This document shows, piece after piece, positions 28,445 to 46,664 of a stretch of DNA of 64,000 nucleotides. This stretch comes from [Leptolyngbya] sp. PCC 7376. Lineage in GTDB: Bacteria > Cyanobacteriota > Cyanobacteriia > Cyanobacteriales > MRBY01. The DNA lies in the NCBI RefSeq assembly GCF_000316605.1, contig NC_019683.1, positions 852,036 to 916,035 on the forward strand, given 5' to 3'. The notes under the pieces are model-generated. The model saw nothing but the letters and a program-made list of their open reading frames with translations. It had not been told where the DNA came from and made no database searches. How positions within the stretch are numbered: position 1 is the first letter of the stretch; each line of letters opens with the position of its first letter. A program made the translations under genes and the position numbers.

Positions 28445-28522
28445 CATGGTTATTTATCCTGTTTGCTCGACCGTAATTTAACACTCAGATTAAATTGCCA
28501 TCACTAGCGTCAACGGAAGAAT

Positions 28523-29563
28523 TTATCCTTCTTCATCTGTATGATCGAGAAGATCACAAGATTCAGCCTTTAGCTCTCGTTCCATCAAAGTCGTCACAGC
28601 TTCCATTGGTGTAATCCGACCTTTCAATACACGGAAAATTTGGCGCGAAATTGAAATCGGAATACCTTCGCGATTAGCAAGGTCAATTAAAACATAGGTT
28701 GTATTCACACCTTCCGCAGTACTGCCAAGCTCTTCAAGAATTTGCTTCAGTTCTTTTCCTTGCGCCAAACCATGGCCAACACGGTGATTGCGGCTAAGGG
28801 GACTCATACATGTTGCAAGCATATCGCCTAAACCTGCTAGACCGAGAAAAGTCTCTGGTTGGCCACCAAAATGCGTACCAATTCGAATGATTTCAGGCAG
28901 AGCACGGGTGATGAGGGCTGATTTTGCATTTGTTCCAAGATTTAGCCCTTCGCAAATACCGACGCCAATGGCAATCACGTTTTTCAAAGTACCGCCAAGC
29001 TCTGTACCGACGGGATCATTATTGGTGTAAACCCGAAAACAGTTAGAAGAAAATAATTCTTGAATGGCGATCGCCGCCGCTTCATCCTTACTAGCGACGA
29101 CTGTTGCAGCGGGTAAACCAGCCTCGATTTCCTTAGAAAGGTTGGGGCCAGAGAGTACAACAATCGGGTTATTAGGGAAAGTTTCTTGCCAGATTTGCGA
29201 GGGAGTACGGGTTGTTTTGGGTTCTAAGCCTTTGGTCGCAGTCACAATGATCGTATCTTCGGAGATCGACAAGGCTTTGAGCTTTACTGCCACATCCGAT
29301 ACGCCCTTCATCGAAATAGCGGACACAATCACATCTGCATCGGCGATCGCCTCATCGAGTTCAAGTTCACCTCGACGCGACCAATTCCTAAGGTCATGGT
29401 CATTAATGGAAGCGAGAGTTGACAGAGCTGAGCCCCAAGCACCGGCACCCAGAACTGTAATAGTCTTGCGATTGGTATTCACCTCTTTGGGGCGTTTTTT
29501 TGGGATAGCAGGATTTGTAATGAATGTTTTCTGAGTCGTAACCGTGGGAGTAAGAATTGACAT
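28523..29563 (-). CDS. gpsA: Glycerol-3-phosphate dehydrogenase [NAD(P)+]
   Basis: GpsA reduces dihydroxyacetone phosphate to glycerol-3-phosphate, the precursor of phospholipids and, in this locus, of glucosylglycerol. The Rossmann motif T-V-L-G-A-G-A-W-G-S-A-L starts near residue 35; ATKGLEPKTTRTPSQIW and VLSGPNLSKEIEAGLP, LGGTLKNVIAIGVGI and GLGDMLATCMSPLSRNHRVG are family motifs. A 34-residue N-terminal extension precedes the fold. Between the cofactor loop and the second strand the usual N-x-x-Y-L-P-G segment is absent (RNWSRRGELELDEAI), a shortening I recall from cyanobacterial homologues. It lies downstream of glpD and ggpS on the same strand. Confidence 0.9.
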   Translation of the reverse strand: MSILTPTVTTQKTFITNPAIPKKRPKEVNTNRKTITVLGAGAWGSALSTLASINDHDLRNWSRRGELELDEAIADADVIVSAISMKGVSDVAVKLKALSISEDTIIVTATKGLEPKTTRTPSQIWQETFPNNPIVVLSGPNLSKEIEAGLPAATVVASKDEAAAIAIQELFSSNCFRVYTNNDPVGTELGGTLKNVIAIGVGICEGLNLGTNAKSALITRALPEIIRIGTHFGGQPETFLGLAGLGDMLATCMSPLSRNHRVGHGLAQGKELKQILEELGSTAEGVNTTYVLIDLANREGIPISISRQIFRVLKGRITPMEAVTTLMERELKAESCDLLDHTDEEG

Positions 29564-29688
29564 TTTTATGTAGTAACAACTTGAGTAATGTGATTTATTA
29601 AAAAAATGGGAATGGGAAGAAAAGCGGTTTGGGAAAATCGCTAGGTCATAACTAACTTCAATGGCTAAACCATGAATTCTTGAGTTTT

Positions 29689-31410
29689 TTAGGAATAAAC
29701 TTTGGGCGGGGTCACATTCTGCACATCAAAGGTTGTGCTAGGCTCGGCTTCTATACAGAAGTCCGGCAGACAATTGCGTCGGATAAAAGCACGGTAATCA
29801 GCTACTTGGCGATCGCATTTTGCCTGGTCAAAACCGCAATGCCGTTGCAGCGTATCCACAATTACCGGTAGAGCATCGTAACCATAATTTGCCAACATCG
29901 TTAGGGTTGTTCGACGGCGGCAAATATCTTCAATGGTGAAAGCCAGTTCCGCCTCAATGGCATATACCACCTGGGCTTTAATATCTGGGAGACTCGCAAC
30001 AATAGGTTCGCTAAGATCGGGAGCTTTATCCACCAATGCGAGGACATTTATGGCCTGGGCACCATAAATACGGCAGAGATGCTGCACTGAGTGACGTTCT
30101 ACCTTCCCTTGATATCGCTGAATTAAGGTTTCAATCTGGGCCGAGTCTGCGGCGATCGCCCCAGGAAGAGGGCGCTTTCGGGTAGAACACTGAGGAGCTG
30201 TCCGCTTCAGCTTCTTATAAACGACATTCACCATTTCTTCGCCAACTTGACGGTAGGTCGTTAACTTACCACCAATCAAAGAGACTAGATTCTTTACTCC
30301 TTCAGGAGTGTGGTCAAATACGACATGACTTCGAGTAATGCTACTCGGGTTGCGATCGCCTACATAGGGAAGAGGTCGCACACCAGAATAGGTGAAAGTC
30401 ACATCCTCGCGGGTCAGCTGAGCTGATGGTAGAACACGGTTAGTCTCTGCCAATAAATAATCAACTTCGGCATTACTCGCTTTAATCTCATCCAAACTGC
30501 CATCGTATTTGATGTCTGTCGTGCCAATGAGGTATTTACCAAGCCACGGAATAATAAAATAAGGACGATTATCACTCGCCGCTTCTACATAAAGAGCGGA
30601 ACCCGGCGCACCAGGAAAAGGCTCAACAACGATATGACTGCCTTTTGTACCACCCATTTTACGCTCACGGCTCAGGGGTTTCTCCCCACCATCGCCCTTA
30701 CCGAGGCGGCAAATCTCATCTACCCAAGGGCCCGATGTATTTACAATCACACTCGCACTCGCATCAATCGTAAATGTCTCATCGGACAATTGATCTTTGC
30801 AGGTAATGGACGTAATCTCTGACGAGCGATCGCCCATTTGCAGTTCTGTTACTGCTGCATAATTGAGCATTGTTGCCCCAGCAGTTTGAGCATCGAGAAC
30901 ATTCTCTAAACACAACCGCTCAGCATACTCAGCCTGTCCGTCATAATATTGCGCAGCACCAACGATATCCTGCGATCGCACTGTCCGAAATAATTGACTA
31001 AACTTTTTTGCACCAAGCATTCGGTGAGCAGGAACAGTCTTATCCAAACTCAGCAGATCGTAGAGAATCATTCCGGCTTGCACTAACCAATATCCCCGTG
31101 CTGCTCCTTTATACAAAGGAATTGTCATTTGCAAAGGGTGAACCAGATGGGGAGCAGTGCGTAGTAAAACTTCCCGTTCTTGAAGCGATTCTCGCACTAG
31201 CGGAAATTCCAGATATTCAAGATAGCGTAAACCGCCGTGGATTAAGCGGGTGGAGCAACAGGTCGAACCTCTAGCAAAGTCTCCTTTTTCGAGCAAAATA
31301 GTCTTCAGACCACGCAGCGCCGCATCGCGTGCAATACCAACACCGTTAATGCCACCGCCAATAATAATTAGGTCATAGTTTGTACTTTGTATCGTTTTAA
31401 AATCTCGCAT
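29689..31410 (-). CDS. glpD: FAD-dependent glycerol-3-phosphate dehydrogenase
   Basis: A 573-residue flavoprotein that oxidises glycerol-3-phosphate to dihydroxyacetone phosphate at the membrane, passing electrons to quinone. The FAD-binding motif DLIIIGGGINGVGIARDAA opens the protein; GDFARGSTCCSTRLIHGGLRYLE is the signature of the family; the C-terminal helical domain (RYQGKVERHSVQHLCRIYG) is complete. It follows ggpS by 223 bases on the same strand, an arrangement I associate with Synechocystis. In the cluster it drains glycerol-3-phosphate produced by GlpK from recovered GG, opposing GpsA. Confidence 0.93.
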   Translation of the reverse strand: MRDFKTIQSTNYDLIIIGGGINGVGIARDAALRGLKTILLEKGDFARGSTCCSTRLIHGGLRYLEYLEFPLVRESLQEREVLLRTAPHLVHPLQMTIPLYKGAARGYWLVQAGMILYDLLSLDKTVPAHRMLGAKKFSQLFRTVRSQDIVGAAQYYDGQAEYAERLCLENVLDAQTAGATMLNYAAVTELQMGDRSSEITSITCKDQLSDETFTIDASASVIVNTSGPWVDEICRLGKGDGGEKPLSRERKMGGTKGSHIVVEPFPGAPGSALYVEAASDNRPYFIIPWLGKYLIGTTDIKYDGSLDEIKASNAEVDYLLAETNRVLPSAQLTREDVTFTYSGVRPLPYVGDRNPSSITRSHVVFDHTPEGVKNLVSLIGGKLTTYRQVGEEMVNVVYKKLKRTAPQCSTRKRPLPGAIAADSAQIETLIQRYQGKVERHSVQHLCRIYGAQAINVLALVDKAPDLSEPIVASLPDIKAQVVYAIEAELAFTIEDICRRRTTLTMLANYGYDALPVIVDTLQRHCGFDQAKCDRQVADYRAFIRRNCLPDFCIEAEPSTTFDVQNVTPPKVYS

Positions 31411-31633
31411 GAATTCCAGAATTTGATTTCAGCAGTGGGAGCATCTTGTCTACATGCCTACCCTCTATAGTCGTATCTAAAAAAGCGCTTGATTGTTGAC
31501 TTCGTATTTAAAAGTTGGAAAGAAAAATGTAGGGCAAGAGGGAATAAAATCGAGACGCGCAAGAAATTGGCGATCGCCTCAGATTATTAAACTCACAATA
31601 AAGATGAATTGAACCGAAATTATCCCTACAGTC

Positions 31634-33178
31634 CTAGGACAACGCCAAATCTTCCTCTAGTCTGGCGGCAGCCTTTGTCGCCTCCTTATCCTTCTGCGCC
31701 AACATCGCTGCGACCTTAGCCTCACGGAACATATGATTCGCCCACTGCTGCACGTCATACTGTTGGATTGTCTTAGACATCGCCGCCATACGATGCTGTT
31801 GCTCTTCAAGAGTCATATCCAGCGCTGTATCAATAGACTCATCCATACGCTTGGTCGCATAGGGATTGGTCAAAATCGCATCAGGCAACTGCACCGCAGA
31901 CCCTGCAAATTCCGAGAGAATAAGCGAGCCATTATCAGTCCCATGGGCAATGACATATTCTTTTGCCACAAGATTTAGGCCATCTCGCAGTGGCGTGATC
32001 CAAGCAATATCAGCAACAGCAAAAAGCGCCAGTAGCTCTTCATAAGTTAAAGCACCAGTAAACAGACGAATAGGTGACCAATTGAGCTTGGCAAACCGAC
32101 CGTTAATCCGGCCAACCAACCGTTCAATTTCACTCTGAGCATTCTTGTAAACCCGCATTCCAGAAGCTGCCTTAGCTGCAGCCACCACCAAATTCACCTT
32201 GGTTTGCAACTCAGGACGGCGCTCTAACAAACGTTCATAACAGAGCAACATTTCTTTCGTACCTTTCACATAGTCGACTCGACCAGCCGAAAGAATTAAT
32301 TTATTACCACCCAGTTCCTCACGAATTTCAGCAATTCGGTTTTGTACATGATCTTGCTCAACTTGCTTACGAATTTGAGCAGGATTAGTACCAACCGGAA
32401 ACGCATCCAACTTTGTTAACTGATTGTTATAACGAATCTGCGTCGTCATTGTTGGCTCCGCCAAAGCTGTACCAGATAAGGTAAAGGAGTTGGCGTCAAC
32501 AGGCTGCTCCTCAACAATCTCCACAGGACAGAGACTCTTCGCCACGGCCACAAAGTTTTGTACATAGCGAGGCAAGTGGAAACCACAGAGGTCACAACAA
32601 AGAAGACTCTCAACGATCGCCTCACGCCAAGGCAATATATTGAAAATATCAACGCTAGGGAAAGGCGTGTGATGGAAAAATGCAATCTTCGCATTAGGCT
32701 TGCGCTGACGAATGAAATAAGGCGTCAACCACAGATTGTAATCATGCACCCAAAATAATGCATCATCATCCGCATTCTCACAGGCCGCCTCTGCAAACAT
32801 TTCATTAATTTGCTTGAAATTTTCCCAATCTGAGGACTCATAGGCAAATTGCCAAGGGAAAGAGTGCAAAATTGGCCAAAATGCTTCCTTAGATGTTACG
32901 TGATAAAAATTCTTAACCTGATCTGCGGAGAGAGGGATGCGATGAACAACCGAGTTTTCCCGTCCGGGGAAGACCATCTTGGATTGAAATGAATCCTTCT
33001 GTTTTGCGGAGATTTGCTTCCATGCAACCCATGTACTCTGTTCAGCACCAGAAAAGAAACTCTTCAGGGTAGGCATGATGCCATTAGGGCTTTTTTTATC
33101 GCGATAAACTGTTTTACCGTTTTCACGCACCTCGTCATAAGGTTCACGGTGGTAGAGAATTACAAGAGAAGATGTCAT
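31634..33178 (-). CDS. ggpS: Glucosylglycerol-phosphate synthase
   Basis: GgpS transfers glucose from ADP-glucose to glycerol-3-phosphate, making glucosylglycerol-phosphate, the key step of the main osmolyte of moderately salt-tolerant cyanobacteria. The 514-residue protein has the GT20 (trehalose-phosphate synthase) fold: FWVHDYNLWLTPYFIRQRKPNAKI-type segment, FFHHTPFPSVDIFNILPWR, SAGRVDYVKGTKEML and WITPLRDGLNLVAKEYV. The start is ATG 33178; GGAGG lies 12 bases upstream. The genomic context (glpD, gpsA, ggpP, ggtABCD, gghA) decides for GgpS against trehalose-phosphate synthase. In Synechocystis the gene is salt-induced and the enzyme is salt-activated. Confidence 0.93.
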   Translation of the reverse strand: MTSSLVILYHREPYDEVRENGKTVYRDKKSPNGIMPTLKSFFSGAEQSTWVAWKQISAKQKDSFQSKMVFPGRENSVVHRIPLSADQVKNFYHVTSKEAFWPILHSFPWQFAYESSDWENFKQINEMFAEAACENADDDALFWVHDYNLWLTPYFIRQRKPNAKIAFFHHTPFPSVDIFNILPWREAIVESLLCCDLCGFHLPRYVQNFVAVAKSLCPVEIVEEQPVDANSFTLSGTALAEPTMTTQIRYNNQLTKLDAFPVGTNPAQIRKQVEQDHVQNRIAEIREELGGNKLILSAGRVDYVKGTKEMLLCYERLLERRPELQTKVNLVVAAAKAASGMRVYKNAQSEIERLVGRINGRFAKLNWSPIRLFTGALTYEELLALFAVADIAWITPLRDGLNLVAKEYVIAHGTDNGSLILSEFAGSAVQLPDAILTNPYATKRMDESIDTALDMTLEEQQHRMAAMSKTIQQYDVQQWANHMFREAKVAAMLAQKDKEATKAAARLEEDLALS

Positions 33179-34200
33179 TTAGAGTTAAACCTCCAAGGTC
33201 TATATTGCACACATCACTCAACCTCGGGGATTCGATGCGCGTCATACAGACACAAATCGAGTCACAGCGACAAGGGAGCAAATGCTCTGAGCACAACAAA
33301 AAAACTGTCATTCAGTTACAGGGAAGCTCTGCAAATCCACTGATACTCAACGAACAGAAATTACTGGGATAGGTCTAACAGATGCGATCACAACCATAGA
33401 CAACTACAGAATTCCTGCCAACTCTATGAAGTTGACAACATCAATGGGTGCAATGGCTAAAGAACTGACGATATTTCACTAAACTTCTATGTCGAAAGCG
33501 AACTGATGATGAACACTGCGACTAAGATGATAGAAGAACTCATTGAAAACTCACATCAAAACACAAGAAGTAGGATGAAATGAAACACTATTCTTTGCAA
33601 AAATAGTATCGGGAGCAAACAATACTAAGAATCTGAGATTTATACTCATTTTTTATTAAAAAGACAATTTAAACATCAGTGAAATAACGTTTTTTTGTTT
33701 TGTCATGCAATAACCCTAACACATTTTTTTGATTGTGTAAAACACAATCAATGGCTTCAAAAAGCTCAAAACTAGGGTCGCAATTTCACTTTTGGATATT
33801 TTTTTAAACTTGTTTTATAACTGCGCTCAAAAGCTTAATTTATTATTAAAAATATTTTCAAGAGTGATTCTCACAAGCTAATAAAAAGCATATAAGCATT
33901 ACCAAGAAAAGATTACAGGCTTGCGAAAAGTTTAAATCGCATCACCTTTTTTTCTTTTTTTGGGAGAAAATGTATTGCAAAGAAAACTACTTTTCGGATT
34001 ATTTCGAAGCTCAATGTTTATGAATTCACTATGTTAGAATCGCTCGAAATAGTTCAACTTAAAAGTAGTATTTTTTACCATTCCTACTATTGGCCTACGT
34101 CTATCGATAGATGTTCGACAACTTTCACCTGCGTAGTGGGTTGGAGCGGAAATATTACTGGGTGTTGAATCGTTCTTGTTGATTTTGCCGAAGAGAATTT
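33179..34200. promoter_or_regulatory. 1-kb divergent regulatory region between ggpS and gghA
   Basis: No convincing gene. It becomes very AT-rich from about 33640 to 34080, contains no HIP1 octamer, and carries a perfect 10-bp inverted repeat at 33729-33751 and the self-complementary decamer CTATCGATAG at 34101-34110. A 33-codon minus-strand frame (33245 down to 33144) overlaps the ggpS start and might be a leader peptide. No homologue of the Synechocystis regulator GgpR could be recognised. Confidence 0.55.
33729..33751. promoter_or_regulatory. Perfect inverted repeat in the ggpS-gghA region, operator candidate
   Basis: Arms TTGATTGTGT and ACACAATCAA are exactly complementary, 10 bp each, around AAA. 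The T run lies on the 5' side when read on the plus strand and becomes an A run on the minus strand, so it does not fit a terminator in either direction. A dimeric repressor or activator site is the better reading. Confidence 0.5.
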
Positions 34201-36762
34201 ATGCCAGCTCGTATGAAACTAGAGGAAACTGAAACTCAAGCGTTATTGGAATGGACCGCGGCGATCGCCGACTCAGAGGAAAGCTATTTTCAACAGGATC
34301 AGCGGCTAGCAATGCGCTTAGGAGCTCATTATCGCCAAGATGGTTTGACGGAAGTGGGATTCTGGACACCCGAAATTGCGGGGGAAGTGATCCAAACTAA
34401 CCGTGATGTCTTTCTTGAAGTGTTTACACCACTGGAGCCGATTGATTTTCAGGCATCGGAACAGAAGGTTAAGTTCCGTCGAGATTGTGTCGAGTTACCA
34501 CAGCAGGGAGAATTTTTCTGGGGCGTTATATCTGGGATGCAGGCTGGCACAAGAACTCAGATGGGTTCGCTCTATTGGTTAAGGTATTACAATCACCTTC
34601 AAGATCAAGTCTCAACCATTGTCGACCCCCTCGCTTATTCCATGCCCTATGGTGTGTTTGCGCCAGCAGAACTCTACGACATGGAGAAGGTGCAACGGGA
34701 AAGATCAGATTTAGGGTATTTTCGAGACCACTCACAAGTTATTGACACCAAAGTGCCAGCATTTGAGCGGCCCATCCTTGAGAAACCAGATGAAGAGTTG
34801 CCTCGTGTACCATCTCCTCTGAATATCTTGCAATTGCATATTAAGACGGCATCGCCAGAAGGAACATTTGCTGGATTAACAAGAGTGTATCAGCGCATTT
34901 CCGATAAGTTAGCGGCGGGAGAAGAGTTGACACCTGCAGAGCAGAATTATGTCAATTACGATGCAGTGCAACTGTTGCCCATTGAACCAACCATTGAATA
35001 TCGCCTTGAGGGGGATAATCATCACCACCAATTTTTTGCGATCGAATCTAATGAGGTCATTGAAGCTGGTCAGTTAGAGTCGGGTTTAGAAGTCGACATT
35101 ACGTTACGAAAGGCCAAAACCCAGAACTGGGGCTACGATGTTCCCATTACTGGCTCCGCAGCGATCAATCCCACGATTATGGAGTCGTTGCGACCGGATG
35201 AACTGATTGATTTTATTGCAACACTCCACAATTTTTCGGGTGGGCCGATGCAAGTTATCTATGACCTTGTGTATGGTCATGCGGATAATCAAGCACTCGA
35301 ACTGATTAGTAAGCAATATTTGAAAGGCCCGAATATGTATGGGCAAGACCTCAATCATCAGTTTCCTCAGGTGCGAGCGATCTTATTAGAGTTACAGCGG
35401 CGCCGGATTAATAGCGGTGCCGACGGCATTCGCATTGATGGGGGTCAGGATTTTCGTTTCTTTAATCCTCTATCCGGACGAGTCGAACAGGATGATGCTT
35501 ATCTGCTAGGGATGAGTGATGTGATCCAAGAAATCGGCGATCGCCAGCGGTTACTGTTCACGATTTTTGAAGATGGGCGACCATGGCCGGATGAAGGCTG
35601 GGAGATGTCTTCGACCTACCGTGATTTGATTGAGCTGCGTCCCGAATCTTATCAGTGGGGGCCACTGATTTTTGCTCACAATACCCCGACTCTAAAAGGG
35701 TTTTGGGATTATAAATGGAATCGTATTACCGAGGTGATGTTTAAAGGTGATCGTTGGATTACGGGCTGTGCAAACCATGACACTGTGCGCCGAGGCAACC
35801 AAATTGATATCGAGACGAGTGACATTAACTGGTTCCTTGGTGAGACTCACGCAGAAGTCATTCGCAATGCCTATGACAATCCAGCAACGACCATGTGGGT
35901 TCATTGCTTTATGCCTGGCTTGCCGATGGACTTTATTAATGCTCTGGTGCGGGCACCTTGGGGATTTTTCCGCAATACCGATGAGCTATACGGCGTAAAG
36001 GTTGCAGCAGAGGAAGTAGGATTTCTCGATTGGCAAATCACGCCAGCACTCTATGCAGAGCCTTGGTCATTTAAACAGCTTAAAGAGTTGGGATTTAATG
36101 AGCTGGATGACCTAAAACGCTTTATGAAAGCACTCAATGAAGCCTTAGTGATTACCGACTATGACCTGAGTAAAACGGCGGAGATTTGCCAACAATGTAT
36201 CGGGGAAGAAGACGGAGCTTGCCCAGTGGAGCCACTAGAAGAGATTGGCGATACAGAGCATCAAAAATTCCTGGATCATCTTACTGTGCCAAAGCTCAAA
36301 ACGATTGCGTTGGCGTTTATGGAGGATGGTCACGAAACTTGTCGTGTCTCTCATTACGAAGACCAAGTTGATTCTCAGCAGAGCAGTTTTAATCTACTAC
36401 TGCGGCAATATCGTCGAGACCATCCTTGGTTACGAGACAATCTACAGGAGCGCGATCGCTTTAACCGTATTAGTGCATTTGGCATCACGGTCTTTTATGG
36501 CTTACGAACAGAATTTGTGGAGCCCGAATCAGACAAAATTCCAGAACAAATTGCCATGGTGGTACATATGGGAGGCGAACCCACAACAGTTACCCTCGCA
36601 GATTGGCTACAACTGGATCTCAGTCAATGGCGCGTGGCGATCACCACTCCAGGTTTAGAAATTGAGAGTACGGCAGAAGCTTTACGAGTATTTGAATTAA
36701 AAGATAGTCAGGGTTTGATACTCGAAGCAATCCCCCCCGCGGGTGACGAAAAAACAACGTAG
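34201..36762 (+). CDS. gghA: Glucosylglycerol hydrolase, GghA type, copy 1
   Basis: This 853-residue protein fits the GghA family (Synechocystis Slr1670), which splits glucosylglycerol into glucose and glycerol. The GH13-type barrel motifs can be traced: region I YDLVYGHADN, region II GADGIRIDGGQDF with the probable nucleophile D413, region III IFEDGRPWP with acid/base E457, and region IV CANHDTVRRGNQ with D527. It carries about 30 extra residues near 175-205 (KVPAFERPILEKPDEELPRV) absent from the second copy, plus a longer C-terminus. It starts the plus-strand half of the GG cluster. Probably cytoplasmic; no signal peptide. Family call is by motif and context. Confidence 0.82.
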   Translation: MPARMKLEETETQALLEWTAAIADSEESYFQQDQRLAMRLGAHYRQDGLTEVGFWTPEIAGEVIQTNRDVFLEVFTPLEPIDFQASEQKVKFRRDCVELPQQGEFFWGVISGMQAGTRTQMGSLYWLRYYNHLQDQVSTIVDPLAYSMPYGVFAPAELYDMEKVQRERSDLGYFRDHSQVIDTKVPAFERPILEKPDEELPRVPSPLNILQLHIKTASPEGTFAGLTRVYQRISDKLAAGEELTPAEQNYVNYDAVQLLPIEPTIEYRLEGDNHHHQFFAIESNEVIEAGQLESGLEVDITLRKAKTQNWGYDVPITGSAAINPTIMESLRPDELIDFIATLHNFSGGPMQVIYDLVYGHADNQALELISKQYLKGPNMYGQDLNHQFPQVRAILLELQRRRINSGADGIRIDGGQDFRFFNPLSGRVEQDDAYLLGMSDVIQEIGDRQRLLFTIFEDGRPWPDEGWEMSSTYRDLIELRPESYQWGPLIFAHNTPTLKGFWDYKWNRITEVMFKGDRWITGCANHDTVRRGNQIDIETSDINWFLGETHAEVIRNAYDNPATTMWVHCFMPGLPMDFINALVRAPWGFFRNTDELYGVKVAAEEVGFLDWQITPALYAEPWSFKQLKELGFNELDDLKRFMKALNEALVITDYDLSKTAEICQQCIGEEDGACPVEPLEEIGDTEHQKFLDHLTVPKLKTIALAFMEDGHETCRVSHYEDQVDSQQSSFNLLLRQYRRDHPWLRDNLQERDRFNRISAFGITVFYGLRTEFVEPESDKIPEQIAMVVHMGGEPTTVTLADWLQLDLSQWRVAITTPGLEIESTAEALRVFELKDSQGLILEAIPPAGDEKTT

Positions 36763-36872
36763 CGAGAGATATCTTGAAGAATGGGGCGATTCGTAGAAAT
36801 GCTGTTTAGCGTTGGCGATCGCCCCTAGTTTCTGATAGAGCCTCCTCTATTGTCGTTTCCCCCAATGATCGT

Positions 36873-39233: not shown

Positions 39234-39338
39234 CAACGGGCGATCGCGTCAAACTATCAATAATTTTTTTAAAATACCTAACTTTTTTTATAAATCCCCT
39301 TTATCACAACCTTTAGTAACCATTCATTTGGGAGACAA

Positions 39339-40847
39339 ATGACAAACTCAAAATATGTGATGGCCTTGGATCTCGGTACCACTGGTAACCGTGCCTTAAT
39401 TTTTAATGGAGCAGGCGAAATTGTTGCCCAAACCTACAAAGAATTGCCTCAGCATTACCCTCAGCCAGGTTGGGTAGAACACGACGCAATGGACATTTGG
39501 AATGACACCCAAAGCGTTATGCAGCAGGCAATTAAAGACAATAATATTGACCCAGCTGAAATTGCAGCGATTGGTTTAACAGTCCAGCGTGAAACTTGTT
39601 TACTTTGGGATAAAACCACAGGCAAACCGCTCCATAATGCTATCGTTTGGCAGGATCGTCGTACCGCAGATTTTTGTCAGAAACTCAGTGCAGCAGGTAA
39701 AGCCAGCGAGATTTATGACAAGACAGGCTTAGTGCTGGATGCCTATTTTTCTGCAACAAAACTAAATTGGTTATTGGATTGGGCGAAGGAAAATAGCGAC
39801 GTTAATCCTGAAAATATTCTTGCCGGAACTGTAGACACTTGGGCACTTTGGAATCTCACAGGCGGTAAAGTCCACGCGACGGATCACAGTAACGCCAGTC
39901 GGACAATGCTCCTCAATATCCAAACTCAAAATTGGGATCCAGAATTGCTGGATATGTTTGGCATCCCGGCACACATCATGCCCAAGGCGCAATCGAGTTT
40001 GGGTGTTTTTGGCTATACAGCTCCAGCATTAGTCGGTGCAGAAATTCCCATTACCGCTATCTTCGGTGATCAACAAGCAGCGCTTTATGCCCACGGTTGC
40101 GATCGCCCCGGTTTGTTGAAATGTACCTATGGCACGGGTGCGTTCCTCGTTGCTCACACTGGCGATCAAATCCCGCGATCGCAGCACAAACTTTTAAGCA
40201 CCATTGCTTGTACTCAGCCTAATGCCGATAAAAGTGCGACCAATGTGGGCTATGCCTTAGAAGGCAGTATGTTTACGGCGGGTGCTTGTATCCAATGGCT
40301 ACGGGATGGCCTCGAAATTATTAAATCTGCCAGTGAAACAGAAGGCCTCGCTTTATCTGTTTCCGATAATGGCGGCGCGTATTTTGTCCCGGCCCTGAGC
40401 GGTTTAGGCGCCCCCCACTGGGACATGGCAGCTCGCGGCGCTTTCCTTGGCATTACGCGCGGTGTCGAAAAAGCTCACATGGTAAGGGCTGTCCTTGAGG
40501 CGATCGCCTACCAAGCAAAAGAAGTAGTTGATGCCATTAACGAAGATTCTGGGACACCAATCACCACCTTAAAAGTTGACGGCGGCGCTTGTAATAACGA
40601 TTTTCTGATGCAATTTCAAGCTGATGTGTTGGGTATTCCCGTCGAACGTCCCGCCGTACTCGATGCCACAGCCCAAGGTGCTGCATTTGCCGCTGGTCTA
40701 GCGGTTGGATTTTGGGAGAGCTACGAAAAACTGGTGGGCGATCGCCAGATCGATAAAGTCTTTACTCCCGGTGAAGGAGCTGAAGCTGCTCAGGCCAATT
40801 TTGCCACTTGGCAGAAAGCTGTCGAACGCGCCAAAGATTGGGTTTGA
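39339..40847 (+). CDS. glpK: Glycerol kinase
   Basis: GlpK phosphorylates glycerol to glycerol-3-phosphate. The 502-residue FGGY-family protein has ALDLGTTGNRALIF at the start, the glycerol-site residues in TVQRETCLLWDKTTGKPLHNAIVWQDRRT, GDQQAALYAHGC, and ALEGSMFTAGACIQWLRD; the FGGY signature 2 region is in LKVDGGACNNDFLMQFQAD. It follows the two GG hydrolases, so its main substrate here is presumably glycerol freed from glucosylglycerol. A GGGAG ribosome site precedes the ATG. Downstream is a hairpin (40862-40910) before ggpP. Confidence 0.95.
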   Translation: MTNSKYVMALDLGTTGNRALIFNGAGEIVAQTYKELPQHYPQPGWVEHDAMDIWNDTQSVMQQAIKDNNIDPAEIAAIGLTVQRETCLLWDKTTGKPLHNAIVWQDRRTADFCQKLSAAGKASEIYDKTGLVLDAYFSATKLNWLLDWAKENSDVNPENILAGTVDTWALWNLTGGKVHATDHSNASRTMLLNIQTQNWDPELLDMFGIPAHIMPKAQSSLGVFGYTAPALVGAEIPITAIFGDQQAALYAHGCDRPGLLKCTYGTGAFLVAHTGDQIPRSQHKLLSTIACTQPNADKSATNVGYALEGSMFTAGACIQWLRDGLEIIKSASETEGLALSVSDNGGAYFVPALSGLGAPHWDMAARGAFLGITRGVEKAHMVRAVLEAIAYQAKEVVDAINEDSGTPITTLKVDGGACNNDFLMQFQADVLGIPVERPAVLDATAQGAAFAAGLAVGFWESYEKLVGDRQIDKVFTPGEGAEAAQANFATWQKAVERAKDWV

Positions 40848-40861
40848 TTTTTTCAACTCTT

Positions 40862-40910
40862 TGGTCTAAAAATCCCTCTTTATAAAGGGGGATTTAGAGA
40901 GATCAGACCA
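40862..40910 (+). terminator. Nested inverted repeat between glpK and ggpP
   Basis: Inner arms AAATCCCTCTTTATA / AAAGGGGGATTT and outer arms TGGTCT (40862-40867) / AGACCA (40905-40910). The A/T-rich C5/G5 hairpin resembles a dispersed cyanobacterial repeat and could terminate or attenuate the transcript. Confidence 0.55.
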
Positions 40911-40937
40911 TCAAAACTATTGAATTAACAGAGGTTT

Positions 40938-42203
40938 ATGACTTTTTCTCCGCTCCATGAGCAATCTTATTCGCTAGACCATGAAGCGTTTATCAAAACC
41001 CTTGCAACAACAGAAAATCTCCTCATTATCCAAGATTTAGACGGGGTCTGTATGGACTTGGTCAAAGATCCGCTGACCCGAAAAATTAGTCCCGATTATA
41101 TTCGTGCAACTCAGCAATTTGACGATCATTTCTTTGTGCTGACTAATGGTGAACATGAAGGGCGAAGAGGTGTGAATCGCATTGTCGAAAAAGCGTTTGT
41201 TGATGACAGTACAGTCTCCTATTTACCAGGATTAGCAGCGGGTGGTGTGCAGTGGCAAACTCGCACAGGTAATATTTCTCATCCCGGCGTCAGCGATGCA
41301 GAACTCGTCTTTTTGGCGAAAGTCCCCATGCTAATCACGCAGCGTCTCGAAGAATTTTTCGTTGAATACAGCGATTATTTTCCTGAAGCCAAATGCAAAG
41401 CGCTCGTTCAAGCCGCAGTGCTAGATAACATCGTTTCTCCCACTGCGAACCTCAATGTTTTAGCAGAACATCTTCAAGATAATCTAGATATTTATCTCGC
41501 CCTACAACAGGCGATCGCCGCGTTAACGGATGAGCTATTAGAGAAAGCCACAGAACAAGGGTTAGAGGATAGCTTTTTTGTCCATTACGCGCCGAACCTC
41601 GGACGAGATGAACAGGGTAAAGAGATTGTGCGATTTGCGGCAGAGCATGATTCAGGGACAACGGATTTTCAGTTCATGTTGCGCGGCGCAGTAAAAGAGG
41701 CAGGTGTCCCTGTTTTGCTGAATCATTACTACCACCAACGGACTGGCACTTATCCTCTCGGTGCCAACTTTAATGCCCGCCAAGCTCCCCAGGAAAATAG
41801 CGCGTTACTGCAACTCATTAAGGACAATTTTGATCCGGCTCTGATGCCTTTAATGATTGGCGTGGGTGATACGGTCACCAGTCAAGTGGAAGGGGATATC
41901 GTCAGACGTGGGGGAAGCGATCGCCTCTTTTTAGAACTTATTCAAGCGATTGGTGCCTGGGCGAATAGCGGCAATCTTGTCACTTATATCGATAGCTCTC
42001 AAGGCGAACTCAAAAATCGAACACCGCTGCAACTGGAGACCGTAGATGGTCAAACAAAAGTTATCGCTGGTGTGACCGATCCAGAAGATCCTTTAAGGAT
42101 TAATATGGCGTTCCCCGGAGGCTTTAAACAATATACAGCGGCCTTCCAGCAAGCAGCCCAGGGTCGATTCAACCAGATATCTTTAGCAACTTCTAATCCG
42201 TAG
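40938..42203 (+). CDS. ggpP: Glucosylglycerol-phosphate phosphatase
   Basis: GgpP (also called StpA) dephosphorylates glucosylglycerol-phosphate to the osmolyte GG. The 421-residue protein shows the HAD motif I in LLIIQDLDGVCMDLV (nucleophile D in DLDG) and the motif HFFVLTNGEHEGRRG; motif IV-like acid residues occur in MIGVGDTVTSQVEGD. Length and the DLDGVCM context match the cyanobacterial enzyme. It lies 11 bases upstream of the GG transporter ATPase gene, clearly an operon. Its partner enzyme GgpS is encoded divergently 7.8 kb away. Confidence 0.93.
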   Translation: MTFSPLHEQSYSLDHEAFIKTLATTENLLIIQDLDGVCMDLVKDPLTRKISPDYIRATQQFDDHFFVLTNGEHEGRRGVNRIVEKAFVDDSTVSYLPGLAAGGVQWQTRTGNISHPGVSDAELVFLAKVPMLITQRLEEFFVEYSDYFPEAKCKALVQAAVLDNIVSPTANLNVLAEHLQDNLDIYLALQQAIAALTDELLEKATEQGLEDSFFVHYAPNLGRDEQGKEIVRFAAEHDSGTTDFQFMLRGAVKEAGVPVLLNHYYHQRTGTYPLGANFNARQAPQENSALLQLIKDNFDPALMPLMIGVGDTVTSQVEGDIVRRGGSDRLFLELIQAIGAWANSGNLVTYIDSSQGELKNRTPLQLETVDGQTKVIAGVTDPEDPLRINMAFPGGFKQYTAAFQQAAQGRFNQISLATSNP

Positions 42204-42214
42204 AGACTTCCGAT

Positions 42215-43303
42215 ATGGCAAGCGTAACGTTTGAACAAGTCACAAAAAAATTTGATGATTATGTGGCGGTCAATAATCTCAATCTGGAAATTGCTGATGG
42301 GGAATTTCTTGTTTTTGTGGGGCCTTCTGGCTGCGGTAAAACCACGTCACTGCGACTACTGGCTGGTCTAGAAACGGTTAGTTCTGGCAACATCTGGATC
42401 GGCGATCGCCCGGTCAACAATCTATCGCCAAAGGATCGGGATATTGCGATGGTGTTTCAATCCTATGCTCTGTACCCCCACATGAGCGTCTTCGAAAATA
42501 TGGCGTTTAGCTTGCAATTACAGGGAACCTCGAAGGCCGATATCAAGAAACGAGTCATCAGTGCAGCAGCGCAACTGGGTATCGAGCAATTGTTGCACCG
42601 TAAACCAAAAGAATTATCCGGCGGACAACGGCAACGGGTAGCAGTGGGACGGGCGATCGTTCGTCAACCGGCAGTGTTTTTGATGGATGAGCCTCTATCG
42701 AACCTTGATGCGAAATTACGGGTACAGGCGCGCAAAGAGATTAGTAAGTTGCAGCACGACCTCAACACAACTTTTATTTACGTCACCCACGACCAAGTGG
42801 AAGCAATGACGATGGGCGATCGCATTGCGGTGATGAAAGATGGCATTTTGCAGCAGGTGGATACCCCCGCCAATCTCTATAACAATCCCGCTAATAAATT
42901 TGTGGCGAGTTTCATCGGTAGCCCAGCCATGAACTTTTTTGAGATTGAGCAGACCACCGAAGCCGGCAATCCTGTCCTCAAAATTGGTGAGCAAACGCTT
43001 CCCATTCCCGACTCTATCAATTTTGGCGATCGCCCTGTTACCCTCGGCATTCGTCCAGAAAATATTTATCACCCCCAATATTTACCGCCAGACATCCATA
43101 GCATCAAAATCTCAGCCATAGTTAATCTCATCGAGATGATGGGTAACGAGTTGATTATCTATTTAGAAACCCCTGACAATATCGAATTTGTCGCGCGCAT
43201 TGATCCCCGCGCGGAAGTGAAAGAAGGCGAAGAATTATTTTTATTGTTCGATATGGAGCGGCTCTACTTCTTTGATCGCGAGATGGAAACAGTACTGAAC
43301 TAA
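42215..43303 (+). CDS. ggtA: Glucosylglycerol ABC transporter, ATPase
   Basis: The 362-residue ATPase has Walker A GPSGCGKTT, Q-loop FQSYALYPHM, signature LSGGQRQRVAVGRA, Walker B VFLMDEPLSNLDAKLR and switch His in YVTHDQVEAM, then a C-terminal OB-type regulatory domain as in UgpC/MsmK-type sugar importers. In cyanobacteria GgtA powers uptake of glucosylglycerol (and sucrose, trehalose) and limits leakage. It follows ggpP by 11 bases and precedes ggtB by 66 bases (to the ATG). Confidence 0.93.
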   Translation: MASVTFEQVTKKFDDYVAVNNLNLEIADGEFLVFVGPSGCGKTTSLRLLAGLETVSSGNIWIGDRPVNNLSPKDRDIAMVFQSYALYPHMSVFENMAFSLQLQGTSKADIKKRVISAAAQLGIEQLLHRKPKELSGGQRQRVAVGRAIVRQPAVFLMDEPLSNLDAKLRVQARKEISKLQHDLNTTFIYVTHDQVEAMTMGDRIAVMKDGILQQVDTPANLYNNPANKFVASFIGSPAMNFFEIEQTTEAGNPVLKIGEQTLPIPDSINFGDRPVTLGIRPENIYHPQYLPPDIHSIKISAIVNLIEMMGNELIIYLETPDNIEFVARIDPRAEVKEGEELFLLFDMERLYFFDREMETVLN

Positions 43304-43369
43304 GCATTTACGCTTATCGTGTTAGACAAATACCCTTTTAAAATCTCGTTTAAATTTTTAAATCCGATA

Positions 43370-44677
43370 ATGAACACCCTATTTTCAAACCTCAATTCCC
43401 AAGCTAAATATTTAACACCTATGCTGGCAGGATCAATATTGCTCGCCAGTTGCCAACCCAGCGAACAAGCAAATGGTGGCAGTGGTGATAGTGACAAACC
43501 CCAAGTCACAATTCTTGGCGTCTTAATCGGTGAACAACAGGAAAAGCTTGAAGCAGCCCTTGCTCCCTTTACCGAAGAAACAGGCATTGAAGTGGTTTAC
43601 GAAGGCACTGATTCCTTTGCAACAACTCTCCCTATTCGCGTAGATTCGGGCAATGCACCAGATCTAGCCATGTTTCCCCAACCGGGTTTAATGGCAGATT
43701 TTGCTCGTGAGGGTGCGATGGTTCCCCTAACAGAATTTATGACCAACGAAGATTTGGGCACAGCCTATGATCAAGCATGGATAGATCTTGGCACTGTCGA
43801 TGGCGATGTTTATGGCGCTTGGTATCGCGCTTCTGTAAAAAGTTTGGTGTGGTACAACCCAGAGCAGTTTGAGGCCAATGGTTATGAAGTGCCAGAAAGT
43901 TGGGAAGAAATGCTGGCGTTGAGCGATCGCCTCGTTGAGGAAGGCAAAACCCCTTGGTGTCTCGGCATGGAAAGTGGTGATGCCACAGGTTGGGTTGGCA
44001 CAGATTGGGTGGAAGAGATTATGCTCCGCACTGCTGCTCCAGAAACCTATGACCAATGGATTAATCACGAAATTCCATTTAATGATCCAGCGGTCAAAAA
44101 TGCGGTTGAGACTTTTGGTGAGATTGTCCGCAATGAAGACTATATTTACGGCGGAATAGTCGGGGCTTTAAGTACGCCTTTTGGAGATTCAATTCAAGGA
44201 TTATTTGGTGAAGAACCGAATTGCTATCTTCATAAGCAAGCGAATTTTATTGCTTCATTTTTACCAGAAGAAATCGACACTTCTAGTGAAGTTGGTATTT
44301 TCCCATTGCCTGGTATCGACTCTGAATATGGCTTGCCCATCTTGGTGGCAGGCGACGTTTTTGGGATGTTTAACGATACGCCTGAGGCACGCCAGTTGAT
44401 GGAATACATCACGACAAAAGTGCCCCATGAAGTTGCAGCAGGATTGGGTGGTTATATTTCCCCTCGCAAGGATGTGGACTTCACGCTTTATCCCGACGAT
44501 TTGACGCGGGTACAGGCGGAGATTTTGGAAAATGCTGATGTGATTCGGTTTGATGGATCGGACATGATGCCCGGTGCAGTGGGTACTGGCACATTCTGGT
44601 CTGGCATGGTGGATTATGTCGGCGGCACGGATGCGGAAACTGTGCTCGATAATATCGAGGCGAGCTGGCCTGAGTAA
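43370..44677 (+). CDS. ggtB: Glucosylglycerol ABC transporter, binding lipoprotein
   Basis: Extracytoplasmic binding protein of the sugar type (SBP family 1). From ATG 43370 the signal peptide runs into lipobox L-A-S-C (GSILLASCQPSEQ), so it is membrane-anchored. Mature motifs: VTILGVLIGEQQEKLEAALAPF, GNAPDLAMFPQPGLMADFA, and TPFGDSIQGLFGEEPNCYLH. The frame also has a GTG at 43319, 17 codons further upstream, which would lengthen the signal peptide unnaturally. It captures GG for GgtCD. Confidence 0.9.
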   Translation: MNTLFSNLNSQAKYLTPMLAGSILLASCQPSEQANGGSGDSDKPQVTILGVLIGEQQEKLEAALAPFTEETGIEVVYEGTDSFATTLPIRVDSGNAPDLAMFPQPGLMADFAREGAMVPLTEFMTNEDLGTAYDQAWIDLGTVDGDVYGAWYRASVKSLVWYNPEQFEANGYEVPESWEEMLALSDRLVEEGKTPWCLGMESGDATGWVGTDWVEEIMLRTAAPETYDQWINHEIPFNDPAVKNAVETFGEIVRNEDYIYGGIVGALSTPFGDSIQGLFGEEPNCYLHKQANFIASFLPEEIDTSSEVGIFPLPGIDSEYGLPILVAGDVFGMFNDTPEARQLMEYITTKVPHEVAAGLGGYISPRKDVDFTLYPDDLTRVQAEILENADVIRFDGSDMMPGAVGTGTFWSGMVDYVGGTDAETVLDNIEASWPE

Positions 44678-44712
44678 ATAGATTTTCCGTAGGGGCTTAA
44701 CTTGAAAATTAA

Positions 44713-44764
44713 GATCCCCCCTAGCCCCCCTTAATAAGGGGGGAAGGCGCTAGCCGGGGGGATC
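44713..44764. repeat. Nested C/G-run hairpin between ggtB and ggtC
   Basis: Outer arms GATCCCCCC (from 44713) and GGGGGGATC (to 44764) enclose a second pair CCCCCCTTA / TAAGGGGGG and a TAGC/GCTA pair. It resembles the hairpin after glpK and may adjust the ratio of binding protein to permease transcript. No long T run follows, so full termination is doubtful. Confidence 0.6.
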
Positions 44765-44820
44765 GAAAGTTATCGAACTCTTGATTGAGTCATCTGTAGA
44801 GGCAAAATTGTGGGGAAGTA

Positions 44821-45798
44821 ATGGAAATTTTGTATCGAATTGGGTCAGTCTTGTTGGCGATCGCCCTGGGATGCGGAGGCGTAATTGGCTTATTCTATGG
44901 CGCAAATTTAGCGATTAACGCCTTGCCGAAACCGTGGAACCGCCATCTGTTGCCCTGGGTGTATATTTCTCCGGCCTTGGCTCTGTTATCTGGCTATTTG
45001 ATTTTGCCCACGCTTCAAACCATTTACCTAAGTTTTTATGACGGGCGATCACAGAATTTCGTTGGTCTAAAAAACTATATTTTTGCCTTTACCGATAAGG
45101 CTATGTTGGTGGCCTTTAAAAATAATTTGCTGTGGCTGGTGCTGGTAACCGGAGTCAGCGTCAGTTTGGGCTTAGTCATTGCGGTGCTCGTCGATAAGGT
45201 GAAATACGAAGCGATCGCCAAATCCCTCATTTTTCTACCGATGGCAATTTCCTTTGTGGGAGCCAGTGTTATCTGGAAATTTATCTATGCCTATAAACCA
45301 GCGGGCGATGACCAAATCGGTTTGCTTAATGCCGTAGTGGTGAGTTTAGGGTTTGAGCCTGTCGGATGGCTGGTGGAAAAATCGGTCAATAATTTTGCCC
45401 TAATCGCAATCATGATTTGGCTCTATACCGGCTTTTGTATGGTGATTCTCTCGGCGGCGGTGAAAGGCATTCCCGAAGATGTAATCGAAGCCGCCAAGAT
45501 TGACGGGGCAAATAGTTGGCAAATTTTCTTTCGCATTACCATTCCGATGATTCGCTCAACAATTTTGGTGGTGAGTACGACGGTGGTGATTTTGGTGCTA
45601 AAAGTTTTCGATATTGTCTTCGTGATGACAGGCGGTAACCAAGGTACAGAAGTGATTGCCAGTCGCATGATCAAAGAAATGTTCAACTTCCGCAATTTTG
45701 GACGAGGGTCGGCGATCGCCGTAATTTTGTTGATTTTGATTATCCCCGTGATGGTAGGCAATATTCGTCGATTTCGAACACAGGAGCGTTTACGGTAA
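44821..45798 (+). CDS. ggtC: Glucosylglycerol ABC transporter, permease 1
   Basis: A 325-residue inner-membrane permease of the MalF type with six to seven hydrophobic helices and the conserved EAA loop KGIPEDVIEAAKIDGANSWQIFFRITIPMI, which docks on the ATPase. The N-terminal helix (RIGSVLLAIALGCGGVIGLFYG) is extra relative to shorter homologues. Its stop overlaps the ggtD start by one base (TAATG), so the two permeases are translationally coupled. Confidence 0.9.
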   Translation: MEILYRIGSVLLAIALGCGGVIGLFYGANLAINALPKPWNRHLLPWVYISPALALLSGYLILPTLQTIYLSFYDGRSQNFVGLKNYIFAFTDKAMLVAFKNNLLWLVLVTGVSVSLGLVIAVLVDKVKYEAIAKSLIFLPMAISFVGASVIWKFIYAYKPAGDDQIGLLNAVVVSLGFEPVGWLVEKSVNNFALIAIMIWLYTGFCMVILSAAVKGIPEDVIEAAKIDGANSWQIFFRITIPMIRSTILVVSTTVVILVLKVFDIVFVMTGGNQGTEVIASRMIKEMFNFRNFGRGSAIAVILLILIIPVMVGNIRRFRTQERLR

Positions 45799-46664
45799 TG
45801 CCAGCAGTTAAACAAAAACAAGCCTTTTGGCAGAAAACGCCTATCCATATCGCGATTGTGGCGATCGCCTTTTTATGGACATTGCCGAGTGTAGGCTTAT
45901 TAATTAGCTCCCTCAGAAAACGGGACGATATGCTTGATACTGGCTGGTGGACTGTCTTCCAACATCCCTTTGAGCTGACGCAATATCATCTCGGCAATTA
46001 CGTCGACGTGGTTAATGCCCAGGGTATGGGTCAGTCTTTTCTGAATAGCTTGACCATTTCTATTCCTGCCACAATTATTCCCATTGCGATCGCCTGTTTT
46101 GCGGCCTATGCCTTTGCTTGGATGAAATTTCCGGGACGACAAGCACTTTTTATTCTGGTGGTCTGTCTTTTGGTAGTCCCCCTACAAACGACATTAATTC
46201 CTGTGCTACGCGTATATCGAGATTTGGGATTATCCAATAGTTTTCTGGGGATTTGGCTAGCTCATACAGGTTATGGTTTACCTCTCGGCATTTATCTGTT
46301 GCGGAACTATATCGGTGCTTTACCGCGTGATTTAATCGAAGCGGCTCAAGTGGATGGCGCATCTCACCTCAAGATTTTCACGAAATTGATTGTGCCACTC
46401 TCAATGCCGGCGATCGCCTCCTTTGCCGTCTTTCAATTTCTCTGGGTCTGGAATGATTTGCTCATTGCCTTGGTTTATCTCGGAGGAACGCCCGATGTTG
46501 CACCCGTAACAATTCAGCTCACAAATCTCGTCGGTTCCCGTGGTCAAGATTGGCATCTGCTCACCGCTGGCGCTTTTATCTCCATGACAGTTCCATTGAT
46601 GGTCTTTTTCGGGTTACAACGCTATTTTGTCCGTGGCATTCTCGCTGGCTCTGTGAAGTCATAA
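45798..46664 (+). CDS. ggtD: Glucosylglycerol ABC transporter, permease 2
   Basis: A 288-residue MalG-type permease that pairs with GgtC. Six hydrophobic helices are visible, with the EAA loop GALPRDLIEAAQVDGASHLKIFTKLIVPLSMP. The N-terminus IAIVAIAFLWTLPSVGLLISSLR and the C-terminal GLQRYFVRGILAGSVK are typical. Last gene of the plus-strand GG operon; the next gene (VOC protein) starts 87 bases downstream and may or may not be co-transcribed. Confidence 0.9.
   Translation: MPAVKQKQAFWQKTPIHIAIVAIAFLWTLPSVGLLISSLRKRDDMLDTGWWTVFQHPFELTQYHLGNYVDVVNAQGMGQSFLNSLTISIPATIIPIAIACFAAYAFAWMKFPGRQALFILVVCLLVVPLQTTLIPVLRVYRDLGLSNSFLGIWLAHTGYGLPLGIYLLRNYIGALPRDLIEAAQVDGASHLKIFTKLIVPLSMPAIASFAVFQFLWVWNDLLIALVYLGGTPDVAPVTIQLTNLVGSRGQDWHLLTAGAFISMTVPLMVFFGLQRYFVRGILAGSVKS

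What the first reader, a model, noticed from the sequence alone, without database searches (positions are those of the whole stretch)
28523..46664. Complete glucosylglycerol synthesis-uptake-degradation cycle in one 18-kb divergent locus
gpsA, glpD, ggpS (minus) and two gghA, glpK, ggpP, ggtABCD (plus) cover precursor supply, synthesis, dephosphorylation, re-uptake, hydrolysis and glycerol recycling. In Synechocystis these functions are, as far as I recall, spread over several loci. Clustering of both the making and the breaking branch suggests coordinated salt-dependent control from the shared 1-kb region.
Basis: partly seen in the sequence, partly recalled or inferred. Interest (0 to 1): 0.65.

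Follow-up and report, generated by a model that had tools for sequence, protein, structure and literature searches.

The report
Clustered glucosylglycerol osmolyte gene locus
This stretch of a salt-tolerant cyanobacterium's chromosome holds nearly all the known genes for making, re-importing and breaking down its osmotic-protection sugar; the pathway and most of this gene clustering are already described, and published data on relatives suggest that the making and breaking genes are switched on together, not oppositely.

Summary
In detail: eleven complete genes at 28523-46664 encode GpsA, GlpD, GgpS (minus) and GghA1, GghA2, GlpK, GgpP, GgtABCD (plus), divergent from a 1,022-bp gap. The novelty and the opposite-control idea do not hold. 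ggpS divergent from gghA occurs in 22 of 41 ggpS genomes of the sampled order and 42 of 80 gghA loci. Co-location is in print, with matching locus tags for Leptolyngbya sp. PCC 7376, almost certainly this organism. Added here: ggpP, linked in 6 of 6 held genomes of the genus, and ggtABCD, linked in 3 of 6. Published data on relatives: gghA and glpK rise with ggpS in salt (Synechocystis); plus-arm ggpP moves with minus-arm ggpS/glpD (PCC 7002). The strands do not separate making from breaking. Futile cycling is probably limited by salt inhibition of GghA, a step known only from Synechocystis. The gap shows no clearly conserved DNA beyond ggpS's ribosome-binding site. The open point is GghA2: catalytic motifs kept, purifying selection, but a changed loop after the catalytic aspartate.

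The parts
28523..29563 (-). gpsA, NAD(P)H glycerol-3-phosphate dehydrogenase (glycerol 3-phosphate supply); a paralogue of a second gpsA elsewhere in the genome
   Evidence: NF011212 504.5 bits against cut-off 377; second copy 75% identical
29689..31410 (-). glpD, FAD-dependent glycerol-3-phosphate dehydrogenase
   Evidence: PRK12266 378.9/360; DAO and DAO_C
31634..33178 (-). ggpS, glucosylglycerol-phosphate synthase (GT20)
   Evidence: TIGR02398 853.7/569
33179..34200 (.). 1,022-bp divergent intergenic region, GC 35%; the only clear block shared with congeners is at the ggpS ribosome-binding site
   Evidence: promoter-like matches in 28200-47200 are not above chance
33144..33311 (-). 55-aa ATG ORF overlapping the ggpS start, placed like Synechocystis GgpR (ssl3076); its sequence is not conserved, so coding is doubtful
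34201..36762 (+). gghA1, glucosylglycerol hydrolase (GHL5), the copy next to ggpS
   Evidence: PF14872 1339.7 bits; tree
36873..39233 (+). gghA2, diverged tandem GHL5 paralogue with GH13-like fold and motifs
   Evidence: PF14872 1055.7 bits; tree; selection and motif test; model and fold search
39339..40847 (+). glpK, glycerol kinase, the only match to that model in the genome
   Evidence: TIGR01311 673.4/590.35
40938..42203 (+). ggpP (stpA), glucosylglycerol-3-phosphate phosphatase
   Evidence: TIGR02399 527.5/365.5
42215..43303 (+). ggtA, ABC transporter ATPase
   Evidence: UgpC subfamily 455.6/432; beside ggtB in all six held genomes of the genus
43370..44677 (+). ggtB, solute-binding protein, probable lipoprotein by eye (start corrected from 43319)
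   Evidence: SBP_bac_1; stops just upstream of this start in 4 of 5 congeners; ATG at 43370
44821..45798 (+). ggtC, ABC permease
   Evidence: BPD_transp_1; matches at E <= 1e-60 in 11 of 41 genomes, the window's own included
45798..46664 (+). ggtD, ABC permease
   Evidence: BPD_transp_1

Best explanation
This is the glucosylglycerol (GG) osmolyte locus of a salt-tolerant cyanobacterium, very probably Leptolyngbya sp. PCC 7376. It is the widespread ggpS | gghA cluster with glpD, glpK and gpsA, enlarged in this genus by ggpP, in some members by ggtABCD and a second gghA. Shown here: gene content, order, family membership, and distribution in relatives. Inferred from work on orthologues: GpsA/GlpD/GlpK set the glycerol 3-phosphate pool, GgpS and GgpP make GG, GgtABCD recovers leaked GG, GghA splits GG to glucose and glycerol, and GlpK may recycle the glycerol. 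Both arms are probably induced together by salt. Futile cycling is then probably limited at enzyme level, chiefly by salt inhibition of GghA, so that a stock of inactive GghA is ready for a salt drop. The features that make this locus fuller than the model organism's are re-location and duplication of known genes, not a new regulatory design.
For: Family assignments above curated cut-offs. ggpS divergent from gghA in 22 of 41 ggpS genomes of the sampled order and 42 of 80 gghA loci; with glpD 27, with glpK 16, with glpD and gpsA 16, with all three 8 of those 80. ggpP linked to ggpS in 6 of 6 genomes of the genus. ggtABCD linked in 3 of 6. Locus tags in print for PCC 7376 match the order found here. 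Synechocystis transcript changes in salt (log2): ggpS 3.85, gghA 2.95, glpK 2.71, ggpP 1.48 (PMC8670252 passages). GghA inhibited by salts in vitro (PMC6753628 passages). ggpS, glpD and stpA change together in PCC 7002 (PMC3468840 passages).
Against: No expression or enzyme data for this organism. In PCC 7002, the closer relative, ion control of GgpS seems minor and transcriptional induction dominates (PMC6753628), so the opposite-ion-control model of Synechocystis may apply here only through GghA. A Synechocystis glpK mutant made as much glycerol as wild type, which the authors read as glpK perhaps not assimilating glycerol under those conditions (PMC5002435). gghA transcript values of PCC 7002 are not in the passages I saw. 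Transporter and GghA2 substrates cannot be told from sequence. No clearly conserved regulatory DNA in the gap, and promoter- and terminator-like matches were fewer than in shuffles, so transcription units are unknown. PMC3826126 detected hexosylglycerol in all ten strains profiled, PCC 7376 among them, though only five have annotated synthesis genes, so detection does not prove this pathway active.
Confidence: 0.85

Rival explanations
1. One reading: the divergent 1-kb region is a switch that drives the two arms in opposite directions with salinity.
For: Divergent layout with one shared gap. In Synechocystis the gghA and ggpS promoters share this region (PMC7567884; PMC6753628). In PCC 7002 ggpS control is mainly transcriptional.
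Against: Orthologous gghA and glpK rise with ggpS in salt. In PCC 7002 ggpS, glpD and stpA, whose counterparts here lie in both arms, change together. In Synechocystis probes for all four GG clusters rose after NaCl. The plus arm holds the synthesis gene ggpP.
Confidence: 0.05
2. GghA2 has moved to another job (another glycoside, or turnover of GG while GghA1 is salt-inhibited), so the locus is more than a duplicated GG cycle.
For: Long stem branch (0.71 against 0.23 for GghA1). Of 201 columns invariant in 17 other GHL5 rows, 24 are changed in all three GghA2 rows and 44 in at least one, with a shared block just after the DGGQDF motif. Orthologous pairs have dN 0.13 and 0.29 with dS 1.7 and 2.9, so the gene is under purifying selection.
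Against: GH13-like motifs GIRxDGGQDF, I(F/Y)EDGRPW and NHDTVR are intact. The gene stays in the GG locus in the 4 of 6 genomes that have it. Per row GghA2 loses 30-36 of 201 such columns, much like another tandem copy, 37 of 238 (L016), so this may be ordinary divergence. dS is near saturation, and the changed loop is low-confidence in the model.
Confidence: 0.25
3. The clustering is incidental, with unrelated transcription units and no selective meaning.
For: In 3 of 6 genomes of the genus ggtABCD lies elsewhere and other genes interrupt the cluster, so full linkage is not required. Several gaps of 66-143 bp in the plus arm leave room for separate promoters.
Against: ggpS | gghA recurs across distant cyanobacterial groups, and ggpP stays linked in 6 of 6 of the genus.
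Confidence: 0.05

Closest known systems
Leptolyngbya sp. PCC 7376 GG genes Lepto7376_0792-0796 (PMC10873239, Fig. 1 legend)
   Same: ggpS 0792, two gghA 0793 and 0794, ggpP 0796: the order found here, with one tag (0795) where glpK lies; almost certainly this locus
   Different: The passages I saw do not mention gpsA, glpD, glpK or ggtABCD beside it
Synechocystis sp. PCC 6803 GG clusters (PMC7567884, PMC8670252)
   Same: ggpS-glpD divergent from gghA-glpK with a shared promoter region
   Different: ggpP-ggtA and ggtBCD are two further, separate clusters; one gghA; gpsA not named in the passages I saw
Picosynechococcus sp. PCC 7117 (L054, same contig as G029/L004) and Synechococcus sp. PCC 7002 (tags A2841-A2851 in PMC10873239)
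   Same: In PCC 7117: gpsA-glpD-ggpS | gghA1 ... gghA2-glpK-ggpP. In PCC 7002: ggpP, two gghA and ggpS within eleven tags
   Different: In PCC 7117 about 7 kb of other genes between gghA1 and gghA2, including an MFS_2 symporter, and ggtABCD elsewhere. In PCC 7002 the transporter is A2036-A2039
Limnothrix sp. RL_2_0 MAG locus (L055; G106/L010)
   Same: glpD-ggpS | gghA-glpK-ggpP-ggtABCD, same order and orientation
   Different: No gpsA and no second gghA found at the locus
Marinobacter ggpPS-ggp pair (PMC10873239)
   Same: Synthesis and breakdown of GG side by side
   Different: Fused phosphatase-synthase and a GH13_18 phosphorylase instead of a GHL5 hydrolase

Membership tests
Cyanobacterial GG synthesis pathway (GgpS + GgpP) | GgpS and GgpP above curated cut-offs | tested here: met
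   TIGR02398 853.7/569; TIGR02399 527.5/365.5
Cyanobacterial GG synthesis pathway (GgpS + GgpP) | Enzyme activity and salt-dependent GG accumulation | not testable with these tools
   PMC3826126 reports hexosylglycerol in all ten strains profiled, PCC 7376 among them, without isomer identity
GghA / GHL5 hydrolase | PF14872 over nearly the full length | tested here: met
   1339.7 and 1055.7 bits against 23.7
GghA / GHL5 hydrolase | GH13-like barrel with Asp/Glu/Asp motifs (motif roles recalled, from no call) | tested here: met
   Motifs in both copies. GghA2 model pLDDT 82.2; Foldseek top hit trehalohydrolase 2bhz_A E 3.1e-15; VIA Z 23.4, rmsd 3.7, 505 aligned to branching enzyme 8zqa_B. Only GghA2 was modelled
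GghA / GHL5 hydrolase | Hydrolysis of GG, inhibited by salt | not testable with these tools
   Known for Synechocystis GghA (PMC6753628); not measured for either protein here
Ggt ABC transporter | ATPase, binding protein and two permeases orthologous to known Ggt | tested here: inconclusive
   General family models met. GgtC matches in 10 other genomes at 67-95% identity. No Ggt-specific model, and no direct alignment to named Synechocystis Ggt proteins
ggpS | gghA divergent cluster | ggpS and gghA divergent and adjacent, with glpD and glpK | tested here: met
ggpS | gghA divergent cluster | Small ORF (GgpR) over the ggpS promoter | tested here: inconclusive
   55-aa ORF at 33144-33311 in the right place, but no similar peptide seen at the 21 other divergent loci; PMC6753628 also says clear GgpR homologues are missing

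The most novel reading that the evidence does not exclude
GghA2 is a specialised second GG hydrolase whose loop after the catalytic aspartate is rebuilt so that it works on another glycoside or stays active at high ion levels. That would give this genus continuous GG turnover in salt, which ion inhibition of ordinary GghA should prevent.
Probability: 0.2. Interest if true: 0.45.

Novelty: already known. Interest (0 to 1): 0.2.

Why it matters
The locus is a compact, natural set of GG genes and a convenient source for GG production or for moving the trait to another strain. It also corrects a natural reading: a divergent synthesis/degradation locus need not be a transcriptional toggle. If GghA2 proves different, it could help explain the strong label exchange between GG and glycogen pools reported for PCC 7002, which also has two gghA (PMC6753628; PMC10873239).

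Tried and rejected
Rfam on the whole window: no match at gathering scores. PDB sequence search with GghA1: none at E <= 0.001; with GgpS: 23 sequences, mostly trehalose-phosphate synthases. Conserved regulatory DNA in the gap: BLASTN against the gaps of the 21 other divergent loci gave only matches of 13-18 bases at E 0.63. MAFFT identity to three congeners stayed at or under the maximum of 20 shuffles in 9 of 9 comparisons, but four of the nine came within 0.02 of that maximum (L007 whole gap and gghA side, L004 both sides), so weak conservation is not excluded. Promoter-like sites 20 against 30.5 in shuffles, terminator-like 16 against 20.3. GgpR-like ORF: position fits, sequence does not recur. 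The idea that gpsA was added only in this genus was dropped, since gpsA is in the cluster in 16 of 80 loci. Rows dropped: 2 of 43 matching genomes had only sub-cut-off ggpS hits (G006, G124) and were not taken further, and weak second hits in other genomes were ignored, hits under 30% of the query and under 80 bits, ggtA hits under 50% and ggtB/C/D hits under 40% identity, as generic ABC genes. The GghA tree has 27 rows; the GghA2 of G053 (L051) was left out by me. The 80 loci are the best 80 of 286 and include second gghA copies and short contigs, so their counts are lower bounds per genome.
Full report
What is there. The window is part of one 5,125,950-base contig. Between 28523 and 46664 lie eleven complete genes. 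On the minus strand: gpsA, glpD, ggpS. On the plus strand: gghA1, gghA2, glpK, ggpP, ggtA, ggtB, ggtC, ggtD. GpsA, GlpD, GgpS, GlpK and GgpP exceed curated NCBIfam cut-offs, and both GghA copies match PF14872 over nearly their full length. The transporter subunits match general ABC families; the name Ggt rests on orthology and context. The genome has one match to the glycerol kinase model, a second gpsA elsewhere at 75% identity, and two GHL5 genes, both here, 56% identical to each other. The likely GgtB start is 43370.

Which organism. PMC10873239 gives Lepto7376_0792 (ggpS), 0793 and 0794 (gghA) and 0796 (ggpP) for Leptolyngbya sp. PCC 7376 in a figure legend (passages seen). Four genes in that order, with one tag left for glpK, is what the window shows. 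The identity is therefore an inference, a strong one; no tool named the genome.

Is the order general? I searched 148 genomes drawn from the order: 43 had a ggpS match and 41 were above cut-off, the window's own included. I took the DNA around ggpS in the 40 others. ggpS is divergent from an adjacent gghA in 22 of 41; in one more (L026) gghA is adjacent in another orientation. Those 41 genomes plus G007, a genome without ggpS, were searched for ggpP and gghA. ggpP: 40 of 42, misses G063 and G007. gghA: 39 of 42, misses G052, G068 and G007. The other 106 of the 148 genomes were not searched for these. All 6 held genomes of the genus have ggpP, and it lies in the ggpS locus in all 6, up to about 17 kb away. 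In the 35 ggpS genomes outside the genus, ggpP was within 5 kb of ggpS in 1 (G064) and within 20 kb in one more (G082), by the coordinates; fragmented assemblies may hide others. ggtABCD is in the locus in 3 of 6 genomes of the genus (window, G072, G106) and elsewhere in 3 (G029, G053, G089). A close ggtC was found in 11 of 41 genomes; in the 5 of these outside the genus it is on another contig than ggpS or more than 1 Mb away by the listed coordinates.

Titled loci. A scan of genome contigs with a 20-row GghA alignment gave the best 80 of 286 loci. ggpS is divergent from gghA in 42 of 80, or 38 of the 65 with at least 3 kb upstream; with glpD in 27, with glpK in 16, with glpD and gpsA in 16, with all three in 8 of 80, among them Picosynechococcus PCC 7117, Petrachloros mirabilis, Vasconcelosia minhoensis and Leptothoe kymatousa; ggpP in 3 of 80; ggtC in 1 of 80, Limnothrix RL_2_0. 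So the core is widespread and the addition of uptake genes is rare in this sample.

Regulation in print, all on orthologues. Synechocystis: ggpS, glpD, gghA, glpK, ggpP, ggtA, ggtB and ggtD rise with salt (PMC8670252, passages). The gghA-glpK cluster shares its promoter region with ggpS-glpD, LexA binds upstream of all four GG clusters, and ggpS and ggpP transcripts both fall after a salt drop (PMC7567884, passages). GghA is inhibited by salts in vitro, and a model of opposite ion control of GgpS and GghA is proposed in PMC6753628 (passages). PCC 7002: ggpS, glpD and stpA rise up to fourfold at high salinity and fall four- to sevenfold at low salinity; the osmolyte transporter falls 3- to nearly 100-fold at low salinity (PMC3468840, abstract and passages). 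The gghA values of PCC 7002 are not in those passages. These results go against opposite control of the two arms. Two results qualify the mechanism that I prefer: in PCC 7002 ion control of GgpS seems minor and its transcription dominates (PMC6753628), and a Synechocystis glpK mutant released as much glycerol as wild type (PMC5002435, passages). I therefore hold salt inhibition of GghA as probable, not shown, and GlpK's recycling role as likely but unproven.

The shared gap. The 1,022-bp gap aligns to the gaps of L007, L004 and L006 at 47.0, 44.0 and 44.1% identity; the maxima of 20 shuffles are 47.2, 48.2 and 48.2%. The six promoter-proximal comparisons also stayed under the shuffled maxima, but three of them only just (L007 gghA side 53.9 against 54.2%; L004 51.7 against 53.4% and 52.3 against 52.6%). 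In the alignment of window, L007, L004, L005 and L006 the best 20-column stretch has 8 identical columns and lies at the ribosome-binding site of ggpS. G106's gap was compared by BLASTN only. A 55-aa ORF overlaps the ggpS start as GgpR does in Synechocystis, but no similar peptide recurs. This does not exclude short or degenerate sites.

GghA2. Four of 6 genomes of the genus carry two gghA (window, G072, G029, G053); G089 and G106 have one. The tree puts GghA2 of the window, G072 and G029 in one supported group next to the GghA1 group of five genomes of the genus (100/100 for each; their union only 80/57), on a stem of 0.71 against 0.23. Of 201 columns invariant in 17 other GHL5 rows, 44 are changed in at least one of three GghA2 rows and 24 in all three; several shared changes follow the DGGQDF motif. 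For comparison, the second copy of L016 loses 37 of 238 and L043 17 of 218, while single GghA2 rows lose 30, 36 and 30 of 201. dN of orthologous GghA2 pairs is 0.13 and 0.29 with dS 1.7 and 2.9. An AlphaFold2 model (pLDDT 82.2, pTM 0.89) matches GH13-type trehalohydrolases and branching enzymes. The changed loop lies in a low-confidence part of the model, so I draw no structural conclusion about it.

Evolution. The ggpS and gghA trees put G106 with the f8 genomes G036/G078 and not with the rest of its own genus; G036/G078 look like Synechocystis, since their GghA begins almost as the slr1670 primer in PMC5002435 implies (my own reading). In the ggtC tree window, G072 and G106 group together, weakly (82/88), apart from the three genomes with unlinked ggt. 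Whether the full cluster is ancestral to the genus or was shared by transfer is open.

Novelty. The pathway, its enzymes, the divergent core and the co-located ggpS, gghA and ggpP of PCC 7376 are in print. I did not find ggtABCD linkage to ggpS described in the listings of searches or in the passages seen; these cover only open-licence PubMed Central papers, and of most listed papers I saw only the listing. This is a fuller example of a known cluster.

Noticed in passing
L004:3601-5046, L006:9828-11270: An MFS_2 sugar transporter gene lies in the GG locus of exactly the three congeners (G029, G053, G089) whose ggtABCD is elsewhere; window, G072 and G106 lack this orthologue, while all six genomes have a 56-62% identical relative elsewhere. 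A possible swap of uptake systems within the locus.
   Followed up: partly
window 36873-39233: GghA2 is a fast-evolving but constrained GHL5 paralogue with a changed loop behind the catalytic-Asp motif.
   Followed up: partly
L010 / L055 (G106, Limnothrix RL_2_0 MAG): Its ggpS and gghA group with Synechocystis-like genomes although the genome is placed in the window's genus; transfer or a placement problem.
   Followed up: no
L135 (G072): About 1 kb of extra DNA between ggtC and ggtD, which overlap by one base in the window.
   Followed up: no
L142 (G089 ggtC): One in-frame TGA reported within the matched ggtC; pseudogene or sequence error not distinguished.
   Followed up: no
L099 (Leptolyngbya sp. 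BC1307): ggpS | gghA-glpK-ggpP in a genome titled outside the window's genus: ggpP linkage may not be confined to it.
   Followed up: no
window 24073-24471 and 26251-26565: By eye (no search run): a low-molecular-weight phosphatase/arsenate-reductase-like ORF and an ArsR-like regulator near the locus.
   Followed up: no
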